From assembly GCA_950054395.1 (NCBI GenBank), contig CATLOZ010000004.1, positions 1-40,197 on the forward strand: a stretch of 40,197 bases of DNA. The letters are read 5' to 3'. The DNA comes from an uncultured Chloroflexota bacterium. GTDB taxonomy: Bacteria > Chloroflexota > Dehalococcoidia > Lucifugimonadales > GCA-002694895. A program made the position numbers and the translations under genes. Under the pieces are notes generated by a model, which saw nothing but the letters and a program-made list of their open reading frames with translations, ran no database searches and had not been told where the DNA came from. Positions 6,871 through 17,831 of the stretch are shown one piece after another (position 1 is the stretch's first letter; every line of letters begins with the position of its first letter).

Positions 6871-7467
6871 TTGATACCTGGTGATTTTAGAGTTCCAAAA
6901 ATAAGTCCAAAGATCTTGTTGATTTCATGTTTGGGGACTTTAATAACTTTAGTAATATTAATAATTGCTGTTTTATTCGTTGGGTCTGCATGGTGGACTC
7001 AACCACTTTTTGGTTTTGATGAAGGTCCTGATCAACCGATAGCTTTTAAACATTCTCCCCATGTAAAGGACCTGGGTATGAAATGTACTTATTGTCATCG
7101 TTTTGGAACAGAAGGTGCAGCTGCAGCTGCTATACCACCTGTTGAATTTTGTATGTCTTGCCACAGAGTAGTTGGTGATGATAATAAAGAAATCAAAAAG
7201 ATCAGAGATGCATATAACGGAGGCAAACCGATTGATTGGGTAAGGGTACACAGACTTCCTGATCATGCTAAATTTTATCACCCGCCACATATAAAAAAAT
7301 TATCTGAGAAAAATAATATAGAAGCAAGCGAAGTTTGTTCTACTTGCCATGGAGATGTGGCATCTATGAATAAAGTAAAACAAGTTTCTCCTATGAAAAT
7401 GGGATGGTGTGTCGATTGCCATAGAGCAAATGGTGCTTCAACTGATTGTACTACTTGTCATTATTGA
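6871..7467 (+). CDS. actA: Alternative Complex III subunit ActA, pentaheme cytochrome c
   Basis: Five CxxCH motifs (CTYCH, CMSCH, CSTCH, CVDCH, CTTCH), N-terminal TM anchor, followed by actB-like genes. Confidence 0.88.
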   Translation: MIPGDFRVPKISPKILLISCLGTLITLVILIIAVLFVGSAWWTQPLFGFDEGPDQPIAFKHSPHVKDLGMKCTYCHRFGTEGAAAAAIPPVEFCMSCHRVVGDDNKEIKKIRDAYNGGKPIDWVRVHRLPDHAKFYHPPHIKKLSEKNNIEASEVCSTCHGDVASMNKVKQVSPMKMGWCVDCHRANGASTDCTTCHY

Positions 7468-7479
7468 GGAATATATAAT

Positions 7480-9708
7480 ATGGATTTAACCAGAAGAGAT
7501 TTTATAAAATTAATTGGTGGAGGAGCTACAGGAGCTATAATTTTTAGTGCTTGCGGAATTCCTGAAGAAGAATTATATTTTCAGTCTCCTAACAAACTTC
7601 CTGAAGACCAGGTTACTGGAATAGATAATTGGTACGCTACACTTGGATCTAATGGCGAAGGCCTTGCAGTCAGGATAATGGAAGGAAGAGCAAAAAAAGT
7701 AGAAGGTAATTCAGATTATCCTAGTAATACAGGTGCTCACAGTTATTCCAATGAAGCCGAATTGCAAATTTTATATCACCCTGAAAGATTAGAGTCACCT
7801 TTAGTAAGAGATGGAAATAGAGGCAGTGGTAAATGGATTGAAATAGGATGGAATGATGCTTATCAGCGAATCAATGATCAATTAAATACTTTGGGGTATG
7901 ATAAATCTCGATTTGTAACTAAACCGCTTGGAGGAAGAAGTAGTTCTGTTATTAGTGCTTTTTCAGATGAGCTTGGGAATAAATTATTAAGCTATTCTTT
8001 TTTTGAAGATACTAATTTAATTAATGCTTTAAATATAATTACTGGTTCAGGTAATATACCAAAATTGGATATTGGTAATTCAGATATGGTGCTCAATTTT
8101 GGAATGGATTTTTTGAATTCCTCTTATTCACAGGCAATGTTTGGAAGAGAGTATGGAAAATTCAGAACTTCACCAAGAGGTAATTTATATCATATCGAGC
8201 CTAGATTGTCCTTAACAGCTACCAATTCTGATGAATGGATATTTTGTGAATTAGGAACTGAAGGTATGATTGCTTCTGCAATAGCATATGTTTTGATTTC
8301 TGAAAAATTAGTAAATACAGATTTTGCCAAGAAGATTAATTCAAATGATCTTTCAGATTTTATGCCTGAGAAAATTTCTAAAATAACTGGTGTAAAACCA
8401 GATAAAATAGTTGACTTGGCTCATAAATTGGCTAAATCAAAACATCCTTTAATTATCGGAGGTGATACTGCTTCCGCCAATACAAATGGCTCATCTAATA
8501 TGATAGCTATATATGCATTAAATTTGCTTTTGGGGAATATTAATAAAGAGGGTGGATTGGTATTAAATCCCGATTCACCTTTAGCAGATTTGCATTCTTC
8601 AAGGACAACTAGTTCTTATCAGGAAATTTTATCTCTTATTGGAGATATAGATTCAGGCACTACTAATTCATTATTTATTAATCAGGTAGATTTGAATTAT
8701 TCAGTGTCTGGTAATATAAATCTTAAATCATCTTTGAGTAAATTAGGATTTATAGTTTCAATGAATTCATTTATTGATGATACTTCTCAATATGCAGATA
8801 TTATTCTCCCTTTAAATACTCAGTTTGAATCATGGGGAAATGATGTTCCTGTAATTGGTCCGGGATACGAAGTTGTAGGATTTCAGCAGCCAATAGTAAA
8901 AAGTCGATTTTCTAATAAGGGAAGACAATCGGGGGCTAAAAGTGCAGAAGAGATTATTATGGAATTATCTAAAATTATGGATTTTAAGAATAAATATTCA
9001 GGCAAAACTATGAAAGATGTTTTGATGGATGATGCAAAAAATATTATGAATTTAAACAGAGGTTCTATAAGAGCAAATGATCTGAAAACTTTTTGGAATG
9101 GTTTATTATCTAGAGGTGGATGGTGGGATGTAAAATCAAAAGTCTCCAAATTGGAAAAAACAAAATTGAAACAATGGCCAAAAATTAACAGTCCTGAATT
9201 TTCAAGTTCCAAATCTTCTTATCATTTAATCCCTTTTAAAACCACAGTTTCTGATGGAAGCTTAGCTAATTTACCTTGGTTGCAAGGATTAACTGATCCT
9301 ATGACAACTATTGCATGGGAAACATGGGTTGAAATTAATGAGCAGGAAGCAGATAAATTAAAAATCAAAGAAGGTGATGTTTTAGAGATTGATAATGGTA
9401 ATGGACGTAAAATTAAAGCAGTAGCTTATCCTACTCCTGCTACTCCTCCAAATGTTTTGTCAGTGCCAGTAGGAAGAGGACAGAAGACAGGTAGATATAC
9501 ATCAGGATTTGGTACAAATATTTATTCTATTATGAATACATCGTATGATCCTAATACTGGTGCTCATGCGTGGGCTTCAAATAAAGTCAATATAAAGAAA
9601 ACCAAGAGCAATATTAAAATACCTAAATTTGAGGGTAGATTTGAGGAAACAAAACGGGATCCTCATAATCATATTATTAAAATAAAATCATCAGATTCTG
9701 ATCATTAA
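7480..9708 (+). CDS. actB1: Alternative Complex III ActB1, molybdopterin-oxidoreductase-like subunit
   Basis: Tat-like N-term TRRDFIKLIGGGATGAIIFSAC with lipobox-like FSAC; molybdopterin-oxidoreductase-like body; operon context. Confidence 0.85.
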   Translation: MDLTRRDFIKLIGGGATGAIIFSACGIPEEELYFQSPNKLPEDQVTGIDNWYATLGSNGEGLAVRIMEGRAKKVEGNSDYPSNTGAHSYSNEAELQILYHPERLESPLVRDGNRGSGKWIEIGWNDAYQRINDQLNTLGYDKSRFVTKPLGGRSSSVISAFSDELGNKLLSYSFFEDTNLINALNIITGSGNIPKLDIGNSDMVLNFGMDFLNSSYSQAMFGREYGKFRTSPRGNLYHIEPRLSLTATNSDEWIFCELGTEGMIASAIAYVLISEKLVNTDFAKKINSNDLSDFMPEKISKITGVKPDKIVDLAHKLAKSKHPLIIGGDTASANTNGSSNMIAIYALNLLLGNINKEGGLVLNPDSPLADLHSSRTTSSYQEILSLIGDIDSGTTNSLFINQVDLNYSVSGNINLKSSLSKLGFIVSMNSFIDDTSQYADIILPLNTQFESWGNDVPVIGPGYEVVGFQQPIVKSRFSNKGRQSGAKSAEEIIMELSKIMDFKNKYSGKTMKDVLMDDAKNIMNLNRGSIRANDLKTFWNGLLSRGGWWDVKSKVSKLEKTKLKQWPKINSPEFSSSKSSYHLIPFKTTVSDGSLANLPWLQGLTDPMTTIAWETWVEINEQEADKLKIKEGDVLEIDNGNGRKIKAVAYPTPATPPNVLSVPVGRGQKTGRYTSGFGTNIYSIMNTSYDPNTGAHAWASNKVNIKKTKSNIKIPKFEGRFEETKRDPHNHIIKIKSSDSDH

Positions 9709-9723
9709 ATAGAGAGGTCATAA

Positions 9724-10455
9724 ATGAAACAATCAAAATGGGGAATGGTAGTAGATTTAGATAAATGCACAGGCTGTCAGGGATGTGTCGTGGCATGTCA
9801 AGCTGAGAATAATATACCATCAAATGAAAAATCAGATTATGATGAAGACAGGGTAATACAATGGATTAGGGTAGAGAGATATTGGGAGGGAACTTTTCCT
9901 GATGTTAAAGCAAGATTCATCCCTATTATGTGTCAGCATTGTGATGAAGCTCCTTGTGAACCAGTATGTCCAGTATATGCTACGTACCACAATAGCGAAG
10001 GCTTAAATGTACAAGTTTATAATAGATGTATTGGTACCAGATTTTGTGCTAACAATTGCCCTTATCAGGTTAGATTTTTTAATTTTTGGGAGGCTGAATG
10101 GCCTGATTCTTTGAAAAATCAACTTAATCCTGATGTGACAGTTAGATCAAGAGGTATTATGGAAAAATGTACTTTTTGTATTCAGAGAATTAGAAGAACA
10201 AAGAGAGATGCTAATGTAAATGGGTTTGAAATAGATGATGGCTCTAGAGCAATTAATCCGGCATGTGTAAATGCTTGTCCAACAGAAGCTTTAGTGTTTG
10301 GAGACATGAATGATTCTAATAGTAAAGTTTCTAAAATAAAAGAAAAAGAAAGTAAAAAAAGTGGCAGAGGATATCACTTGATGGAACATTATGGCACGTC
10401 ACCTAATGTTATATATTTAAAGAAAATAGAAAAAAATAAATCACATTCAAATTAA
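9724..10455 (+). CDS. actB2: Alternative Complex III ActB2, polyferredoxin iron-sulfur subunit
   Basis: Cys motifs CTGCQGCVVAC, CQHCDEAPCEPVCP, CIGTRFCANNCP, CTFC...CVNACP. Confidence 0.88.
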   Translation: MKQSKWGMVVDLDKCTGCQGCVVACQAENNIPSNEKSDYDEDRVIQWIRVERYWEGTFPDVKARFIPIMCQHCDEAPCEPVCPVYATYHNSEGLNVQVYNRCIGTRFCANNCPYQVRFFNFWEAEWPDSLKNQLNPDVTVRSRGIMEKCTFCIQRIRRTKRDANVNGFEIDDGSRAINPACVNACPTEALVFGDMNDSNSKVSKIKEKESKKSGRGYHLMEHYGTSPNVIYLKKIEKNKSHSN

Positions 10456-10461
10456 ATAAAT

Positions 10462-11889
10462 ATGAAATTAGAATACGATAGCAAAACTAGAAAAGGGAAA
10501 TTAATATATCCTGAGAAAGTTATCGAAAGATCTCTTGGAAAGGTCCCTCCTTCAAAAGACCTGATAGATAAACATTTGCATAAAAGAGGGGGCATGTTTA
10601 GGATTTCTTTGATGCTTACTGCAATTTTTTCAGTCATAGGTATATTAGGAACTATCCTTAAAGTTATTAATGGTTTTGATAATTTAAGTGACTGGTCAGT
10701 ATATGTTACTGCTTGTGTTTTTATATTCACTACTTTTATGGGAGCACCTATGTTATCTATGGCTACAAAAGTTGCAAGAGGTAACTGGAGCCGTCCTGTA
10801 TCTAGATTGTCCGAAATATTCTGTATTTCAGGTATAGCCGGACTCTTAATGTTTTTACCAATCTTATGGGTATTGCCAAGCCTTGAAGATGGAAGAAATA
10901 CATTATGGTTTTATGATCCAGGTAAAGTTCCTGCTTATTCCCCGCATATCTGGACTACCATTGTAATGATTGCATTTATACTAACTGCCTTAGCACTTTT
11001 ATGGATAAATGCCCGTCCTGACTTTGCGATTTTAAGAGACAATTCAAAAGGAAAAAATAAAATATATTCATTTTTGTCTTGGGGCTGGGTAGGTTCAACT
11101 AAACAGTGGAATTCGTTGAGGCAAAGAGTAAGTATTTTGGGTATTTTTTATTTTATGCTTTTAATAACTGTTCATTTTTGTTTGGCTTCAGATTTTTTGA
11201 TGACATTACTTCCAGGCTGGATTGACTCATTATATCCTGTAACTCAAGCTCATAATGCAATTCAAGGTGGTGTGGCTGTATTAATTATTGCTGTATTTAT
11301 TGCTTGGAAGTGGGGTGGGTATAAGCAATATATAGGTTTAGATCAATTTTGGGGATTAGGTAAATTATTATTTGGCATTTCATTATTGTGGGTTTGGTTT
11401 TTTATATCTAGCTTGATGGTTTTATGGTATGGTAAAAAACCTAATGAACGAGATGTTTTACAAATTTTAATGTTTGGCAAATATCTTCCTGTATTTTTGG
11501 GTACAATATTTTTTGTTTTTATAATTCCTTTTACATTATTAATATTGAATAATGTAAGAAAATCCTTTTATGGTCCGCCTATTATTGCTATCAGCGTTTT
11601 AATTGGGAACTTTTTAGATAGATTCAGACATTATTCTTCGGCTTATTCTTTAGATAGAACAATAGATGAAAATACACATAGATTTGCCAATTTACCCGAA
11701 ATCTATGTTCCAAGTATTGTGGATATAATGGTTCTTTTAGGAGCAATTTCATTACCAATATTTTTAATTTTAATTATATCTAAGTATGTTCCTATTATAA
11801 GCTTATGGGAAAATAGGGAATATATTCTTTACGGGAGTCATGAAAAATACCATCATACTGAAGTTTTGGTAGAGGGTAAGCCTTATTAA
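10462..11889 (+). CDS. NrfD-like membrane subunit of ACIII (ActF-like candidate)
   Basis: 475 aa polytopic protein between actB2 and the actC-like gene; NrfD-type organisation. Confidence 0.75.
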   Translation: MKLEYDSKTRKGKLIYPEKVIERSLGKVPPSKDLIDKHLHKRGGMFRISLMLTAIFSVIGILGTILKVINGFDNLSDWSVYVTACVFIFTTFMGAPMLSMATKVARGNWSRPVSRLSEIFCISGIAGLLMFLPILWVLPSLEDGRNTLWFYDPGKVPAYSPHIWTTIVMIAFILTALALLWINARPDFAILRDNSKGKNKIYSFLSWGWVGSTKQWNSLRQRVSILGIFYFMLLITVHFCLASDFLMTLLPGWIDSLYPVTQAHNAIQGGVAVLIIAVFIAWKWGGYKQYIGLDQFWGLGKLLFGISLLWVWFFISSLMVLWYGKKPNERDVLQILMFGKYLPVFLGTIFFVFIIPFTLLILNNVRKSFYGPPIIAISVLIGNFLDRFRHYSSAYSLDRTIDENTHRFANLPEIYVPSIVDIMVLLGAISLPIFLILIISKYVPIISLWENREYILYGSHEKYHHTEVLVEGKPY

Positions 11890-11906
11890 ATATGGAAATT
11901 ATATAA

Positions 11907-13301
11907 ATGCAAGAACATACACAGTTATCGGATAAGGAAATAACGGATGATTTATTATCTCCAGTTATAAGATCACCAAAATGGTTTTGGATGACAATAG
12001 GTTCCCTTGGTTTGATTATGTTATTAGGTTTATCTGGATATGTATGGGAATTATATAGTGGTTTAGGTGTCACTAATGTAAAAAGACCAGTATATTGGGG
12101 TGCATATATTACTAATTTTGTTTTTTGGATTGGTATTAGTCATGCAGGAATTATGGTTTCAGCTATATTAAGATTAACTCAGGCAGAATGGAGAAGATCT
12201 ATAACTAGAGCAGCTGAAGTTTTAACTTTATTTTCTTTGATTGCTGCTCTTAGTAATATTTTATTTCATGTTGGTAGACCCTGGAGAATATATTGGATAA
12301 CACCTTTGCCGCCAGTAGTAATAGGATATGATTTTGCGAGAGGAATTTGGCCTAATATTAGATCTCCTTTTGTATGGGATCCTGTAGCAGTTGGAACTTA
12401 CCTTTTAAGCACTATTTTGTTTATTTATACTTGTCTACTCCCTGATATAGCATTAGTTCGAGATAAAGTTAAATCTAAAATTCCAAAAATTATATATAGT
12501 GTCCTTGCCTTAGGATTTAGAGGAACACCAAGACAGTGGAAAATTCAAGCCACAGCTCCAATTTTATTATCTGCACTAGTACTACCTATTTTCGTTTCTG
12601 TACATAGTATAGTTTCATGGGACTTTGCAGTTTCCATTGCAGTTGAAGGCTGGCATTCCACGATTTTTGCTCCTTACTTTATTATTGGAGCTATTCATTC
12701 AGGTGTTTCAGCTGTTGCTTGTTTAATGGCAGGATTGCTATGGCTATATAAATTGGACAAATATATTAAACCTGATCACTTTGATGCTATAGGGAGATTA
12801 TTGGTAATTGTAGCAACCATATGGCTTTTCACATTATTTTTAGAATGGATTTTTGCTTTGTATCCTTTGGAAGATCCTGAAATAGCATTGAGAAATATGC
12901 AGGTTTTCCAATCTCCATGGAATTACTTATTTATTTTGTTTTTATTCACAGCTTATATAATACCGGTAAGTGCATGGTTATTTAAAAATATAAGAAGAAG
13001 TGCTAAGTGGATGTTCTTTACAACGATATTAGTTAATGTAGGTATGTGGTTAGAACGTTTTTTGATTATTATACCCGGATTATCCAGAAGAACAGAATTA
13101 AGCTTTAATTGGGGATCTTATTCACCTAGTCTTGTTGAGATGGGCTTGGTTGCATTTACATTTGCATTTGTTATTTGCGGTATATTGGTTTTTGCAAGAA
13201 TCTTTCCTATAATCCCTCCTTTTGATGTCAAAGAAGGAATGAGGTTCAGGCATATAATAAAAATAGGTAAAAGAAATATTTCAGCAGTAGTAAGGGAGTA
13301 A
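11907..13301 (+). CDS. actC: Alternative Complex III ActC, NrfD family quinol-interacting subunit
   Basis: VYWGAYITNFVFWIGISHAGIMVSAILRLTQAEWRRSITRAAE...HVGRPWR is ActC-like; operon position before actD. Confidence 0.87.
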   Translation: MQEHTQLSDKEITDDLLSPVIRSPKWFWMTIGSLGLIMLLGLSGYVWELYSGLGVTNVKRPVYWGAYITNFVFWIGISHAGIMVSAILRLTQAEWRRSITRAAEVLTLFSLIAALSNILFHVGRPWRIYWITPLPPVVIGYDFARGIWPNIRSPFVWDPVAVGTYLLSTILFIYTCLLPDIALVRDKVKSKIPKIIYSVLALGFRGTPRQWKIQATAPILLSALVLPIFVSVHSIVSWDFAVSIAVEGWHSTIFAPYFIIGAIHSGVSAVACLMAGLLWLYKLDKYIKPDHFDAIGRLLVIVATIWLFTLFLEWIFALYPLEDPEIALRNMQVFQSPWNYLFILFLFTAYIIPVSAWLFKNIRRSAKWMFFTTILVNVGMWLERFLIIIPGLSRRTELSFNWGSYSPSLVEMGLVAFTFAFVICGILVFARIFPIIPPFDVKEGMRFRHIIKIGKRNISAVVRE

Positions 13302-13304
13302 ATT

Positions 13305-13820
13305 ATGGCTAATAAAAGTGTTTTAGGATTGTTTGTAGATGAGAATGTAGTAGGAGATACATTATCTTCTCTTCGTAAATCAGGTTATAAAGATAACGAA
13401 TTAGAGGTTATGACCGGATCACCATATCCTGAAGGTACATTTGGCGAGGCAGAACCACATCATAAATTATTTAGATATCCAATATTTGGAGCTGTAATAG
13501 GATTTACAGTAGCATTGATAATTACTGTTGGAACACAATTAGCATATCCTTTGGTAACAGGGGGAAAACCAATTTTATCTATTCCTCCAATGCTTGTTAT
13601 CTTTTATGAAATGACATTGTTATTTTCAGTTATTGTAACTATCCTAGGTGCATTATTTGAATCAAGATTACCAAGGATATTTATGGGAGCTTATGATGAA
13701 CGTATTATGACTGAAGGGTATATTGGTTTAGTAGTGACTGTTAGTGAATCGAGAATTAAAAAAGCTGAAGATACTTTAAAAAAATTTGGAGCGGAATCTA
13801 CTAAAAGAGGATGGGAATGA
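13305..13820 (+). CDS. actD: Alternative Complex III ActD (DUF3341-like)
   Basis: ActD-like GSPYPEGTFGEAEPHHKLFRYPIFGAVIGF; two TM segments; operon context. Confidence 0.85.
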   Translation: MANKSVLGLFVDENVVGDTLSSLRKSGYKDNELEVMTGSPYPEGTFGEAEPHHKLFRYPIFGAVIGFTVALIITVGTQLAYPLVTGGKPILSIPPMLVIFYEMTLLFSVIVTILGALFESRLPRIFMGAYDERIMTEGYIGLVVTVSESRIKKAEDTLKKFGAESTKRGWE

Positions 13821-14485
13821 CAAATTATTTAGGTAAGAGATATACATTTCTTTTATTCTTATTTTCAATATTACTTTTAACAGCTTGTGCTGCGAATATC
13901 AAAACAGGTGAACTTAACATTTTAGGAGAGACTGCGACTTTAGATATGCCTGCAGTTCCTAGATCAGGAAGTCATGCAATAGTGATATTTAGTGAAATGC
14001 ATTATCAGCCATCTTATAAGAGTCAGGAGATTCCAAGGATTATGCCAAATCCTGAAGCAGTTCCTATGAATGGGAAAGAAATAAATCGAACTCCTGAAGA
14101 ATATAAATCTTTAACTATCCCTTCTGAGTATGATGATGACGAATTATCCAGTCAAGGAGCTTTGTTATATGCTGAGAATTGTGTGTATTGCCATGGAGAA
14201 CAATTAGATGGCAATGGAAAATATAGGAATTATGTAAATAAAAAATTAGATGATGGTAAAGTCATTAATAAAGGTGCGTATCCTGCAAATTTATTATCTG
14301 ATAAAACAGTACAATCTACTAGTGGTGAGATTTTTGCATTTATATCTAAGGGATCTAGAACAGGTTTGGCTCAATATTCTAATGATTTACCTATTGCATC
14401 AGGTATGCTTCCCTATGATTCAATTTTAACAGAGGAAGAAAGATGGGCTTTAGTTTCATATATTCGTAGAATTCAAGGGAGGTAA
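13811..14485 (+). CDS. actE: Alternative Complex III ActE, monoheme cytochrome c lipoprotein
   Basis: Lipobox LLLTAC; single CVYCHG heme motif; C-terminal cytochrome c-like GMLPYDSILTEEERWALVSYIRRIQ. Confidence 0.85.
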   Translation: MGMTNYLGKRYTFLLFLFSILLLTACAANIKTGELNILGETATLDMPAVPRSGSHAIVIFSEMHYQPSYKSQEIPRIMPNPEAVPMNGKEINRTPEEYKSLTIPSEYDDDELSSQGALLYAENCVYCHGEQLDGNGKYRNYVNKKLDDGKVINKGAYPANLLSDKTVQSTSGEIFAFISKGSRTGLAQYSNDLPIASGMLPYDSILTEEERWALVSYIRRIQGR

Positions 14486-14486
14486 T

Positions 14487-14558
14487 ATGTCAGAAAAAAA
14501 ATGTGTCAACCCAAATTGCAAATGCGTAGATTGCGCTTGCGATCCCTGCAATTGTTAA
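14487..14558 (+). CDS. 23-aa Cys-rich metallothionein-like small protein (not in supplied ORF track)
   Basis: ATG...TAA encodes MSEKKCVNPNCKCVDCACDPCNC (7 Cys); AGGGAGG Shine-Dalgarno at the actE stop; CACDPCNC resembles CACEPCLC of cyanobacterial SmtA. Confidence 0.8.
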   Translation: MSEKKCVNPNCKCVDCACDPCNC

Positions 14559-14629: not shown

Positions 14630-15777
14630 ATGCCTGCAATTAATCAGAGGTTTCATGGTTTAGATGCTCTAAGAGGTTTTGCCATGCTGCTTGGAATTAT
14701 TTTACATGCAGCATTACCATACATGGGTTTTGGTGAAAGTATGATTTGGCCTTCTGATAATGATGATTCGAGATTAATTGCTATCATTTTTCAATTTATA
14801 CATTTGTGGCGTATGCCTGTTTTTTTTATACTTTCAGGATTTTTTGCTAGCTTATTTGTCAGTAGATATGGTTGGACCTATTGGTGGAAAAACAGATTTC
14901 TACGCATAGTGTTACCTTTAATTATTTTTACTTTTATAATGAGTGCAACTATCCCATGGATATTTAAATATGGATATACGGAAAAATTATCTTTATTTTA
15001 TTCTAATGACATCAACCCCATCATTTATGGTTTTTGTGGCATTTAATTATAATCACTCTATTTATTATATTTTATAAGTTTTATTCTCTGATTTTTTTAA
15101 AATTATTGAATATATTGAAATTTTCAAAATTAATAATTTTTTTTAATTTTATAAAATCATTAATCGCAAAAAATTTATTTGATTTCCAAATCCCAATCAC
15201 TTTAATAATAATTTTAACTATATGTAGTCTCAATGATATGGGGACAGAATTAGCTGGTAATCCGATTTCCACTGGTATTTATTTTGCCTATGGATACAGT
15301 TTGTATAAAAATACAAAATTATTTCATAATATTATTCATAATTGGAAATATTATTTTTTATCAGCCATATTATTTTTCTTGATTCACACTTTGATTGAAG
15401 AGGAATACATTTCAATTGATTTTGAGCAATTCCCTGTTTTTTGGATTCCTTTTATATTTATAAAAATTTCTAATTCAATATTATTTTCCTTTTCATTTAT
15501 TGGCTTGGCCGAAAATAAATTTGGATCTTATAATTCAATTTTAAGATTTTGTTCAGATGGAACATATTGGATGTATTTAATTCATTTACCAATTGTTACA
15601 TTTATTACATTTTTCATGTTTCAATTTGAGCTTTTTGCAGAATTTAAATTTCTTTTGGCAATTATTTTAACAACATTTATATGCCTGATAACATATAAAT
15701 TCTTTGTTAGATCAACCTGTATAGGAATATTGTTAAATGGAAGAAAATATCAATTTAAATGGAATAATTTTAATTAA
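14630..15777 (+). pseudogene. acyltransferase-3 family membrane protein (OafA/OpgC-like), split by a frameshift into ORFs 14630-15046 and 15034-15777
   Basis: N-part RFHGLDALRGFAMLLGIILHAALPYM...FFILSGFFASL; continuation WHLIIITLF in another frame across TTTTT at 15031-15035; combined about 380 aa. Confidence 0.8.
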
Positions 15778-15778
15778 T

Positions 15779-16513
15779 TTAAATGTTTTTCACCCATATA
15801 GTTTTCGCAATATTTAATCCGAGATCTACAGTACTTTTATTTATTTTAATAGTAATAATCCCTCTTGTAACAGACAGTTCTTTTATTGAAATTTTATTAC
15901 CTGGAAGAACTTTGTTTTTGTTAAGGAATTCTACAAATTCTGGATTTTCTGGAGGAATTTTAGAAATAATATATAATTCATTTGTAATTGATTTAGTAAG
16001 AGGGAAATTTTGTTCATTTCCATTGAAATTCACACCGGGTATAGTTTGTCCAAAAGGATCTTTGTTAGGATAATTAAGTAATTTATCAATAGAATTTTCT
16101 ACTTCCTGTGACATTGCATGTTCTAATCTATGAGCTTCCTGAAAGACATCTTTAAGTTCAATTTTTAATATTTCATGCAAAAATTTACTTGCAAGTCTAA
16201 ATCTTTTAGTTTGTTCTTTAGCTGAAATTTTGCCGTATTCAGTTAAGAATATTTCATTATTTTTATCTTTTGTTATTAAGTGATCTCTTGTCATTCTCTT
16301 AAGCATTCCAGTAACAGTTGGCAGGCTTGTACCTAAATTTTCGGAAGAAGGTAATTGTTTAATGTATTCTAATAAAGTACTTGCTGTGATTTTTTCGTTT
16401 TTTTCATTTAGTAAATACATTGCATATAAATAGTTTTCGGTATTGTGAGATAATTTTCTATGTACAGGGCAATTTATATTTTCCCATTTTCTAATTTGTT
16501 TTTGTTGATTCAT
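15779..16513 (-). CDS. DtxR/MntR-family metal-dependent transcriptional regulator with FeoA-like C-terminus
   Basis: Winged-helix SLPTVTGMLKRMTRDHLI, metal-site region EAHRLEHAMSQEVE, DPFGQTIPG, C-term SH3/FeoA-like segment. Confidence 0.82.
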   Translation of the reverse strand: MNQQKQIRKWENINCPVHRKLSHNTENYLYAMYLLNEKNEKITASTLLEYIKQLPSSENLGTSLPTVTGMLKRMTRDHLITKDKNNEIFLTEYGKISAKEQTKRFRLASKFLHEILKIELKDVFQEAHRLEHAMSQEVENSIDKLLNYPNKDPFGQTIPGVNFNGNEQNFPLTKSITNELYIISKIPPENPEFVEFLNKNKVLPGNKISIKELSVTRGIITIKINKSTVDLGLNIAKTIWVKNI

Positions 16514-17513: not shown

Positions 17514-17831
17514 TTATCCTCTTTCTTCGATTTTATCTTCTGTTGCAATTTCGAAAAATTCTATATCGTAGGATTGAATTAATTCCATAAGTTTAGGTGC
17601 ATTTTCTTTTACAGCTGAAGGTACATTTGGCATTCTGTTTGCAGCAATTGTTTCTTGAGTCCATTCAGCACAAACTGTAATTTCTGCAGCTGGTGTTCCC
17701 GCACCACCTATGTAAATTGTTGCTTTATCTCTACCGTTTTCTTCATAAGCATTGCATATTTTGGTCAGTAGATTAGCTACTTTCCAAGCATTTACTCTTT
17801 CTGTACGACATACCCTTCTTACTAAAAACAT
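17514..17831 (-). CDS. hypothetical protein (small alpha/beta protein)
   Basis: 105 aa ORF, co-directional with the RidA gene, 27 nt apart, filling the interval before convergent PRODH. Confidence 0.6.
   Translation of the reverse strand: MFLVRRVCRTERVNAWKVANLLTKICNAYEENGRDKATIYIGGAGTPAAEITVCAEWTQETIAANRMPNVPSAVKENAPKLMELIQSYDIEFFEIATEDKIEERG

What the first reader, a model, noticed from the sequence alone, without database searches (positions are those of the whole stretch)
14487..14558. 23-aa metallothionein-like Cys-rich micro-ORF coupled to the end of the Alternative Complex III operon
Seen directly: the actE stop is followed one base later by an ATG, with AGGGAGG as Shine-Dalgarno. The ORF MSEKKCVNPNCKCVDCACDPCNC has 7 Cys in 23 residues, spaced CxxxxCxCxxCxCxxCxC. 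CACDPCNC resembles the CACEPCLC block of SmtA-type bacterial metallothioneins, but the rest of that fold is absent. Inference: a minimal metal-binding peptide translated with a heme/Fe-S respiratory complex, perhaps for Cu/Zn buffering or cofactor delivery. It falls below normal gene-calling length.
Basis: partly seen in the sequence, partly recalled or inferred. Interest (0 to 1): 0.72.

Follow-up and report, generated by a model that had tools for sequence, protein, structure and literature searches.

The report
Tiny cysteine-rich metal-binding peptide gene
A 23-amino-acid, cysteine-packed peptide encoded right behind a respiratory-complex operon in an uncultured, probably marine bacterium is a real conserved gene, and it belongs to an apparently unnamed family of miniature metallothionein-like peptides found in other bacteria, archaea and many phages, sometimes fused to a heavy-metal (copper-chaperone-like) domain.

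Summary
ATG 14487 to TAA 14558 encodes MSEKKCVNPNCKCVDCACDPCNC, one base after the actE stop of a genuine Alternative Complex III operon in a SAR202-type Chloroflexota genome. It is not chance: no comparable ORF arose in 300 simulated windows. The ORF sits 1-2 nt after actE in all four genus genomes where ActD was found. Changes concentrate at third codon positions, and all seven Cys are kept with only TGT/TGC swaps.

The ACIII-specific interpretation is weak. Elsewhere in the order the same 7-Cys peptide lies at unrelated sites, 35 other act loci lack it, and the gene downstream is decayed in two species while the ORF stays intact. The peptide belongs to a family (CxNxxCxCxxCxC[D/E]PCxC) with no confident Pfam, NCBIfam, PHROG or PDB match. 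Standalone members occur in several bacterial and archaeal records and in at least 119 viral contigs (mostly 9-Cys forms, often beside NifU/IscA-type Fe-S genes or Hsp20); others are C-terminal tails of HMA (heavy-metal) proteins near a P-type ATPase or Cus-type efflux genes.

Best reading: a minimal Cu(I)/Zn(II) thiolate buffer, co-translated here with a haem/Fe-S complex; a new variant of metallothionein. Metal binding is inferred, not shown.

The parts
14487..14558 (+). Micro-ORF MSEKKCVNPNCKCVDCACDPCNC, metallothionein-like, 7 Cys, no His, no aromatic residue
   Evidence: orthologues
14476..14482 (+). AGGGAGG, Shine-Dalgarno-like, inside the end of actE
   Evidence: Read directly
13811..14485 (+). 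actE, monohaem cytochrome c subunit of ACIII; its stop is 1 nt before the micro-ORF ATG
   Evidence: PF00034 E=1.9e-9, PF13442 E=6.5e-8
13305..13820 (+). actD
   Evidence: PF11821 E=2.7e-27
11907..13301 (+). NrfD-type membrane subunit (ActC/ActF)
   Evidence: PF03916 E=4.3e-25
10462..11889 (+). 475-aa probable second membrane subunit; assigned by position only
   Evidence: No Pfam hit
9724..10455 (+). Fe4S4 part of ActB (separate ORF)
   Evidence: PF13247, PF12838
7480..9708 (+). molybdopterin-like part of ActB (separate ORF)
   Evidence: PF00384 E=4e-24
6871..7467 (+). actA, multihaem cytochrome c
   Evidence: PF14522 E=3e-10; QrcA-like NF041781 below its cut-off
14630..15777 (+). acyltransferase-3 family gene, frameshifted in this genome (ORFs 14630-15046 and 15034-15777)
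   Evidence: PF01757 on the first part; tblastn with the intact relative shows a frame change at residue ~126-131
15779..16513 (-). DtxR/MntR-type metal-dependent repressor with FeoA domain, convergent, conserved next door in the genus
   Evidence: PF02742 E=1.9e-18, PF04023, PF01325; same order in L046-L048

Best explanation
The ORF is a real gene for a minimal metallothionein-like peptide. Shown: it is conserved under protein-level constraint, is placed for translational coupling to actE, and belongs to a wider family with the core CxNxxCxCxxCxC[D/E]PCxC. Inferred: the seven thiolates wrap around soft metal ions, most likely Cu(I) as a small polynuclear cluster and possibly one or two Zn(II), and so buffer free cytosolic metal. 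In this genus expression is tied to that of a haem/Fe-S respiratory complex, probably because Fe-S and haem assembly are targets of copper mismetallation and because demand tracks respiratory growth. It is not a dedicated ACIII subunit or cofactor donor.
For: Conservation at the same place, 1-2 nt after actE, in four species, with third-position-biased change and only synonymous change at Cys codons. If the six Cys codons that vary changed independently and without selection, all-synonymous change has p about 1e-4 to 2e-6 for ts/tv 4 to 1. The gene downstream is frameshifted in G000 and G001 while this ORF is intact. The family recurs in other SAR202 families (16 of 250 genomes counting G004, which carries Ns), other phyla and at least 119 viral contigs. 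The same module is the C-terminal tail of PF00403 HMA proteins; one such gene lies near CusB/TolC-type efflux genes (L102) and another near an HMA P-type ATPase (L081), which points to copper or similar soft metals. Viral members lie beside NifU-like (30 contigs) and IscA-like (14 contigs) Fe-S genes. Fungal metallothioneins with seven Cys bind about six Cu(I) (PMC13107397). The genus encodes HMA-domain proteins and CuA oxidase COX2.
Against: No metal-binding, expression or phenotype data. The HMA fusions are in other phyla, and homology over about 18 residues of Cys-rich sequence could be convergence. Several SAR202 copies have no metal gene next to them. All sequences of the genus are fragmentary genomes.
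Confidence: 0.68

Rival explanations
1. A dedicated ACIII accessory peptide: it delivers or protects Fe-S/haem/Cu cofactors of this complex, or is a small subunit of it.
For: Strict actE linkage in four species of the genus and tight spacing.
Against: Absent after actE in 35 other act loci of the order; relatives in families f15, f23 and f28 carry it away from act; the family is common in viruses. ACIII is present without it in most of the order, judging by ActD in 90 of 98 genomes.
Confidence: 0.12
2. A Cys-rich leader peptide whose translation senses cysteine or metal supply and regulates the next gene, in the manner of small regulatory upstream ORFs.
For: Short, Cys-dense, and about 9 nt upstream of the acyltransferase gene in two species.
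Against: The acyltransferase is frameshifted in two of four species while the ORF is intact; no terminator-like hairpin found; the family recurs with unrelated downstream genes and as a tail of HMA proteins, so the peptide itself matters.
Confidence: 0.07
3. A general thiol-redox or zinc buffer rather than a copper one.
For: Composition suits any d10 metal; some SAR202 copies lie beside an FecCD-type uptake system and the actE copy lies near a DtxR-type repressor.
Against: Seven Cys and no His is too few for the Zn4Cys9His2 cluster of SmtA; fusions are to HMA domains, with neighbouring Cus-type efflux and P-type ATPase genes.
Confidence: 0.12
4. A chance ORF without function.
For: Very short, below gene-calling limits.
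Against: 0 in 300 simulations; conservation and codon pattern.
Confidence: 0.01

Closest known systems
Bacterial metallothionein SmtA/BmtA/PmtA (Pfam PF02069 Metallothio_Pro)
   Same: Cys-rich, CxC[D/E]PCxC block, presumed cytosolic metal-thiolate binding
   Different: 23 aa instead of about 50-60, no His, no zinc-finger-like second half; no PF02069 match
Small fungal metallothioneins with 7 Cys (Neurospora crassa, Agaricus bisporus; fungi-I)
   Same: Seven Cys in a small peptide; these bind about six Cu(I) (PMC13107397)
   Different: Different Cys spacing (from memory) and no traceable homology; taxonomically remote
HMA-domain copper chaperones (CopZ type, PF00403)
   Same: The same Cys-rich module is the C-terminal tail of HMA proteins in L102 and L106 (PF00403) and in L081 (HMA read by eye)
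   Different: The SAR202 and viral versions are the tail alone, with no HMA domain
Unannotated viral peptides MCNNEECKCENCTCDPCECTxxNPCGC (IMG/VR contigs)
   Same: Same core CxNxxCxCxxCxC[D/E]PCxC
   Different: Typically 9 Cys with an extra C-terminal pair (64 of 71 distinct peptides have 9 Cys); next to phage genes

Membership tests
PF02069 bacterial metallothionein (SmtA type) | Match to the Pfam model | tested here: not met
   No hit for the peptide or relatives at E up to 10 or 1
PF02069 bacterial metallothionein (SmtA type) | 9 Cys plus His ligands for a Zn4Cys9His2 cluster | tested here: not met
   7 Cys, 0 His
Metallothionein in the broad sense | Small, very Cys-rich, CxC/CxxC motifs, few aromatics | tested here: met
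   7 of 23 residues Cys, three CxC, no aromatic residue
Metallothionein in the broad sense | Binds several d10 metal ions as thiolate clusters | not testable with these tools
   Needs peptide chemistry
ACIII operon component | Conserved with act genes across ACIII-bearing lineages | tested here: not met
   Only in one genus; absent after actE in 35 other act loci and elsewhere in the genome in other families
Family CxNxxCxCxxCxC[D/E]PCxC (described here) | Core motif in a short standalone ORF | tested here: met
Regulatory leader peptide | Controls an intact downstream gene, often through an attenuator | tested here: not met
   Downstream gene decayed in two species, no terminator-like site
HMA copper chaperone | PF00403 domain | tested here: not met
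   No HMA domain in the window peptide; only distant relatives are fused to it

The most novel reading that the evidence does not exclude
An undescribed family of roughly 21-50-residue micro-metallothioneins is widespread among bacteria, archaea and especially phages. It guards Fe-S cluster and haem assembly against copper during respiratory growth or infection, and phages carry it as an auxiliary gene together with NifU/IscA and Hsp20.
Probability: 0.35. Interest if true: 0.8.

Novelty: new variant of a known kind. Interest (0 to 1): 0.58.

Why it matters
Peptides this short are missed by gene callers and by family libraries, so a common metal-handling gene may have gone unnoticed. The family gives a simple test case: a 21-23-residue peptide that can be synthesised. 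Its recurrence in phages next to Fe-S assembly genes would make metal control during infection directly testable. For SAR202 bacteria it suggests how a small genome without SmtA-type metallothioneins may buffer soft metals.

Tried and rejected
Chance ORF: rejected by simulation and conservation. First viral pattern hit (L045): chance, inside a longer unrelated ORF. Several genome pattern hits were alternative frames of low-complexity or Cys-repeat proteins, or long Bacteroidales tails, and were not counted as standalone members. tblastn of a viral peptide against cultured phages found nothing, but the low-complexity filter may mask Cys-rich queries. Neighbour-guided searches reached C48C1, Melnitz, P-HM2 and S-RIM50; no member was seen in the regions examined, nor in the whole C48C1 record. 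Profile search of the PDB gave no match. A scan of 399 genomes drawn from the phylum found only the window's genome. Literature searches for phage or SAR202 metallothioneins returned no paper; that library holds open-licence papers only.

Full report
What is there. Bases 6871-14485 hold an Alternative Complex III operon. One base after the actE stop an ATG opens a 23-codon ORF ending in TAA at 14558. The Shine-Dalgarno-like AGGGAGG (14476-14482) lies inside the end of actE, so translation of the two is probably coupled (inference).

Is it real. No ORF of this composition appeared in 300 Markov simulations of the window. A search of relatives found the ORF after actE in three more genomes of the genus (ActD positions; regions), with 1-2 nt between the actE stop and the ATG each time. 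The fifth genome, 65% complete, lacks a detected ActD as well. In the aligned core the window and its relatives differ mostly at third positions, and the seven Cys change only between TGT and TGC. At six of seven Cys codons a synonymous change is seen and no non-synonymous one; under independent neutral change this has probability of about 1e-4 to 2e-6 depending on ts/tv bias. That is a rough test, since four related sequences are not independent events.

What follows the ORF. In G003 and G004 an acyltransferase-3 gene starts about 9 nt later; in the window it is 71 nt away and frameshifted, and in G001 it is broken at two places. The micro-ORF has stayed intact while this neighbour decays, which argues against a leader-peptide role. 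No terminator-like site was found. Convergent to it lies a DtxR/MntR-type metal-dependent repressor with a FeoA domain, conserved at this place in the genus.

The family. Outside the genus, a profile of 13 members found the peptide in 15 of 250 genomes of the order at E<=0.01; G004 is a sixteenth, weakened by Ns. These are 7-Cys peptides such as MSSEKPKCDNPNCTCDPCECDPCEC, beside a phosphotriesterase-family gene and an FecCD-type uptake system in family f23, and at several unrelated sites in family f28. Thirty-five other act loci of the order have no such ORF after actE. The actE linkage is therefore a trait of one genus.

Some of these MAG contigs could be misbinned or viral. In L081, L102 and L106 the module ends proteins with an HMA-type domain (PF00403 confirmed for L102 and L106; L081 read by eye). 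L102 lies next to CusB-like and outer-membrane efflux genes; L081 lies near an HMA P-type ATPase.

Of 71 distinct viral peptides, 64 have 9 Cys, and 66 have a further Cys a short way behind the core. Because the pattern demands the Cys codons, their conservation in this set is circular; the mixed use of TGT and TGC is not. Neighbouring genes are NifU-like (30 contigs), Hsp20 (28), M15 endolysin (26), SNase nuclease (25) and IscA-like (14), with phage structural genes; counts include near-identical contigs. One SAR202-binned contig (G074:C40, L050) carries a peptide identical to viral ones beside two IscA-like genes and a NifU-like gene and is probably a phage.

No family library recognises these peptides with confidence: Pfam gave nothing, PHROGs gave one weak match (one of 18 members, phrog_21897, E=0.0092), NCBIfam gave only a chance ComC hit at E=0.2, and the PDB none. 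Literature searches found no description, within an open-licence library only.

How it probably works. Three CxC motifs, no His and no aromatic residue make a thiolate ligand for soft metals. Seven-Cys fungal metallothioneins bind about six Cu(I) (PMC13107397). With the HMA fusions and the copper-efflux-type neighbours, Cu(I) is the likeliest cargo, with Zn(II) possible. Fe-S and haem assembly are known copper targets (general knowledge), and both the actE-linked and the NifU-linked copies lie with such genes. The genus encodes HMA proteins and COX2, and no SmtA-type metallothionein was found among 60 relatives. Metal binding, expression and the protective role are inferred, not shown.

Verdict. 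It is a new variant of metallothionein, with a large viral branch that deserves attention.

Noticed in passing
window 15779-16513: DtxR/MntR-type metal-dependent repressor with FeoA domain two genes from the micro-ORF, convergent, conserved in the genus.
   Followed up: partly
window 14630-15777: Acyltransferase-3 gene is frameshifted here and broken at two places in G001, but intact in G003 and G004.
   Followed up: yes
window 7480-10455: ActB appears as two separate ORFs (742 and 243 aa), a molybdopterin-like part and an Fe-S part; the same split is seen in G001 and G004.
   Followed up: partly
L050 (G074:C40:1-19900): Contig binned with a SAR202 genome carries two IscA-like genes, a NifU-like gene and a viral-type 9-Cys peptide; probably a phage contig.
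   Followed up: partly
window 17514-17831: 105-aa conserved protein without Pfam match; a homologue also lies beside the unlinked micro-ORF in G138 (L297).
   Followed up: no
L067, L070, L079, L117, L139: Bacteroidales/Prevotella long proteins with repeated CKCxxCKCDPCxC C-terminal tails, a similar module in another setting.
   Followed up: no
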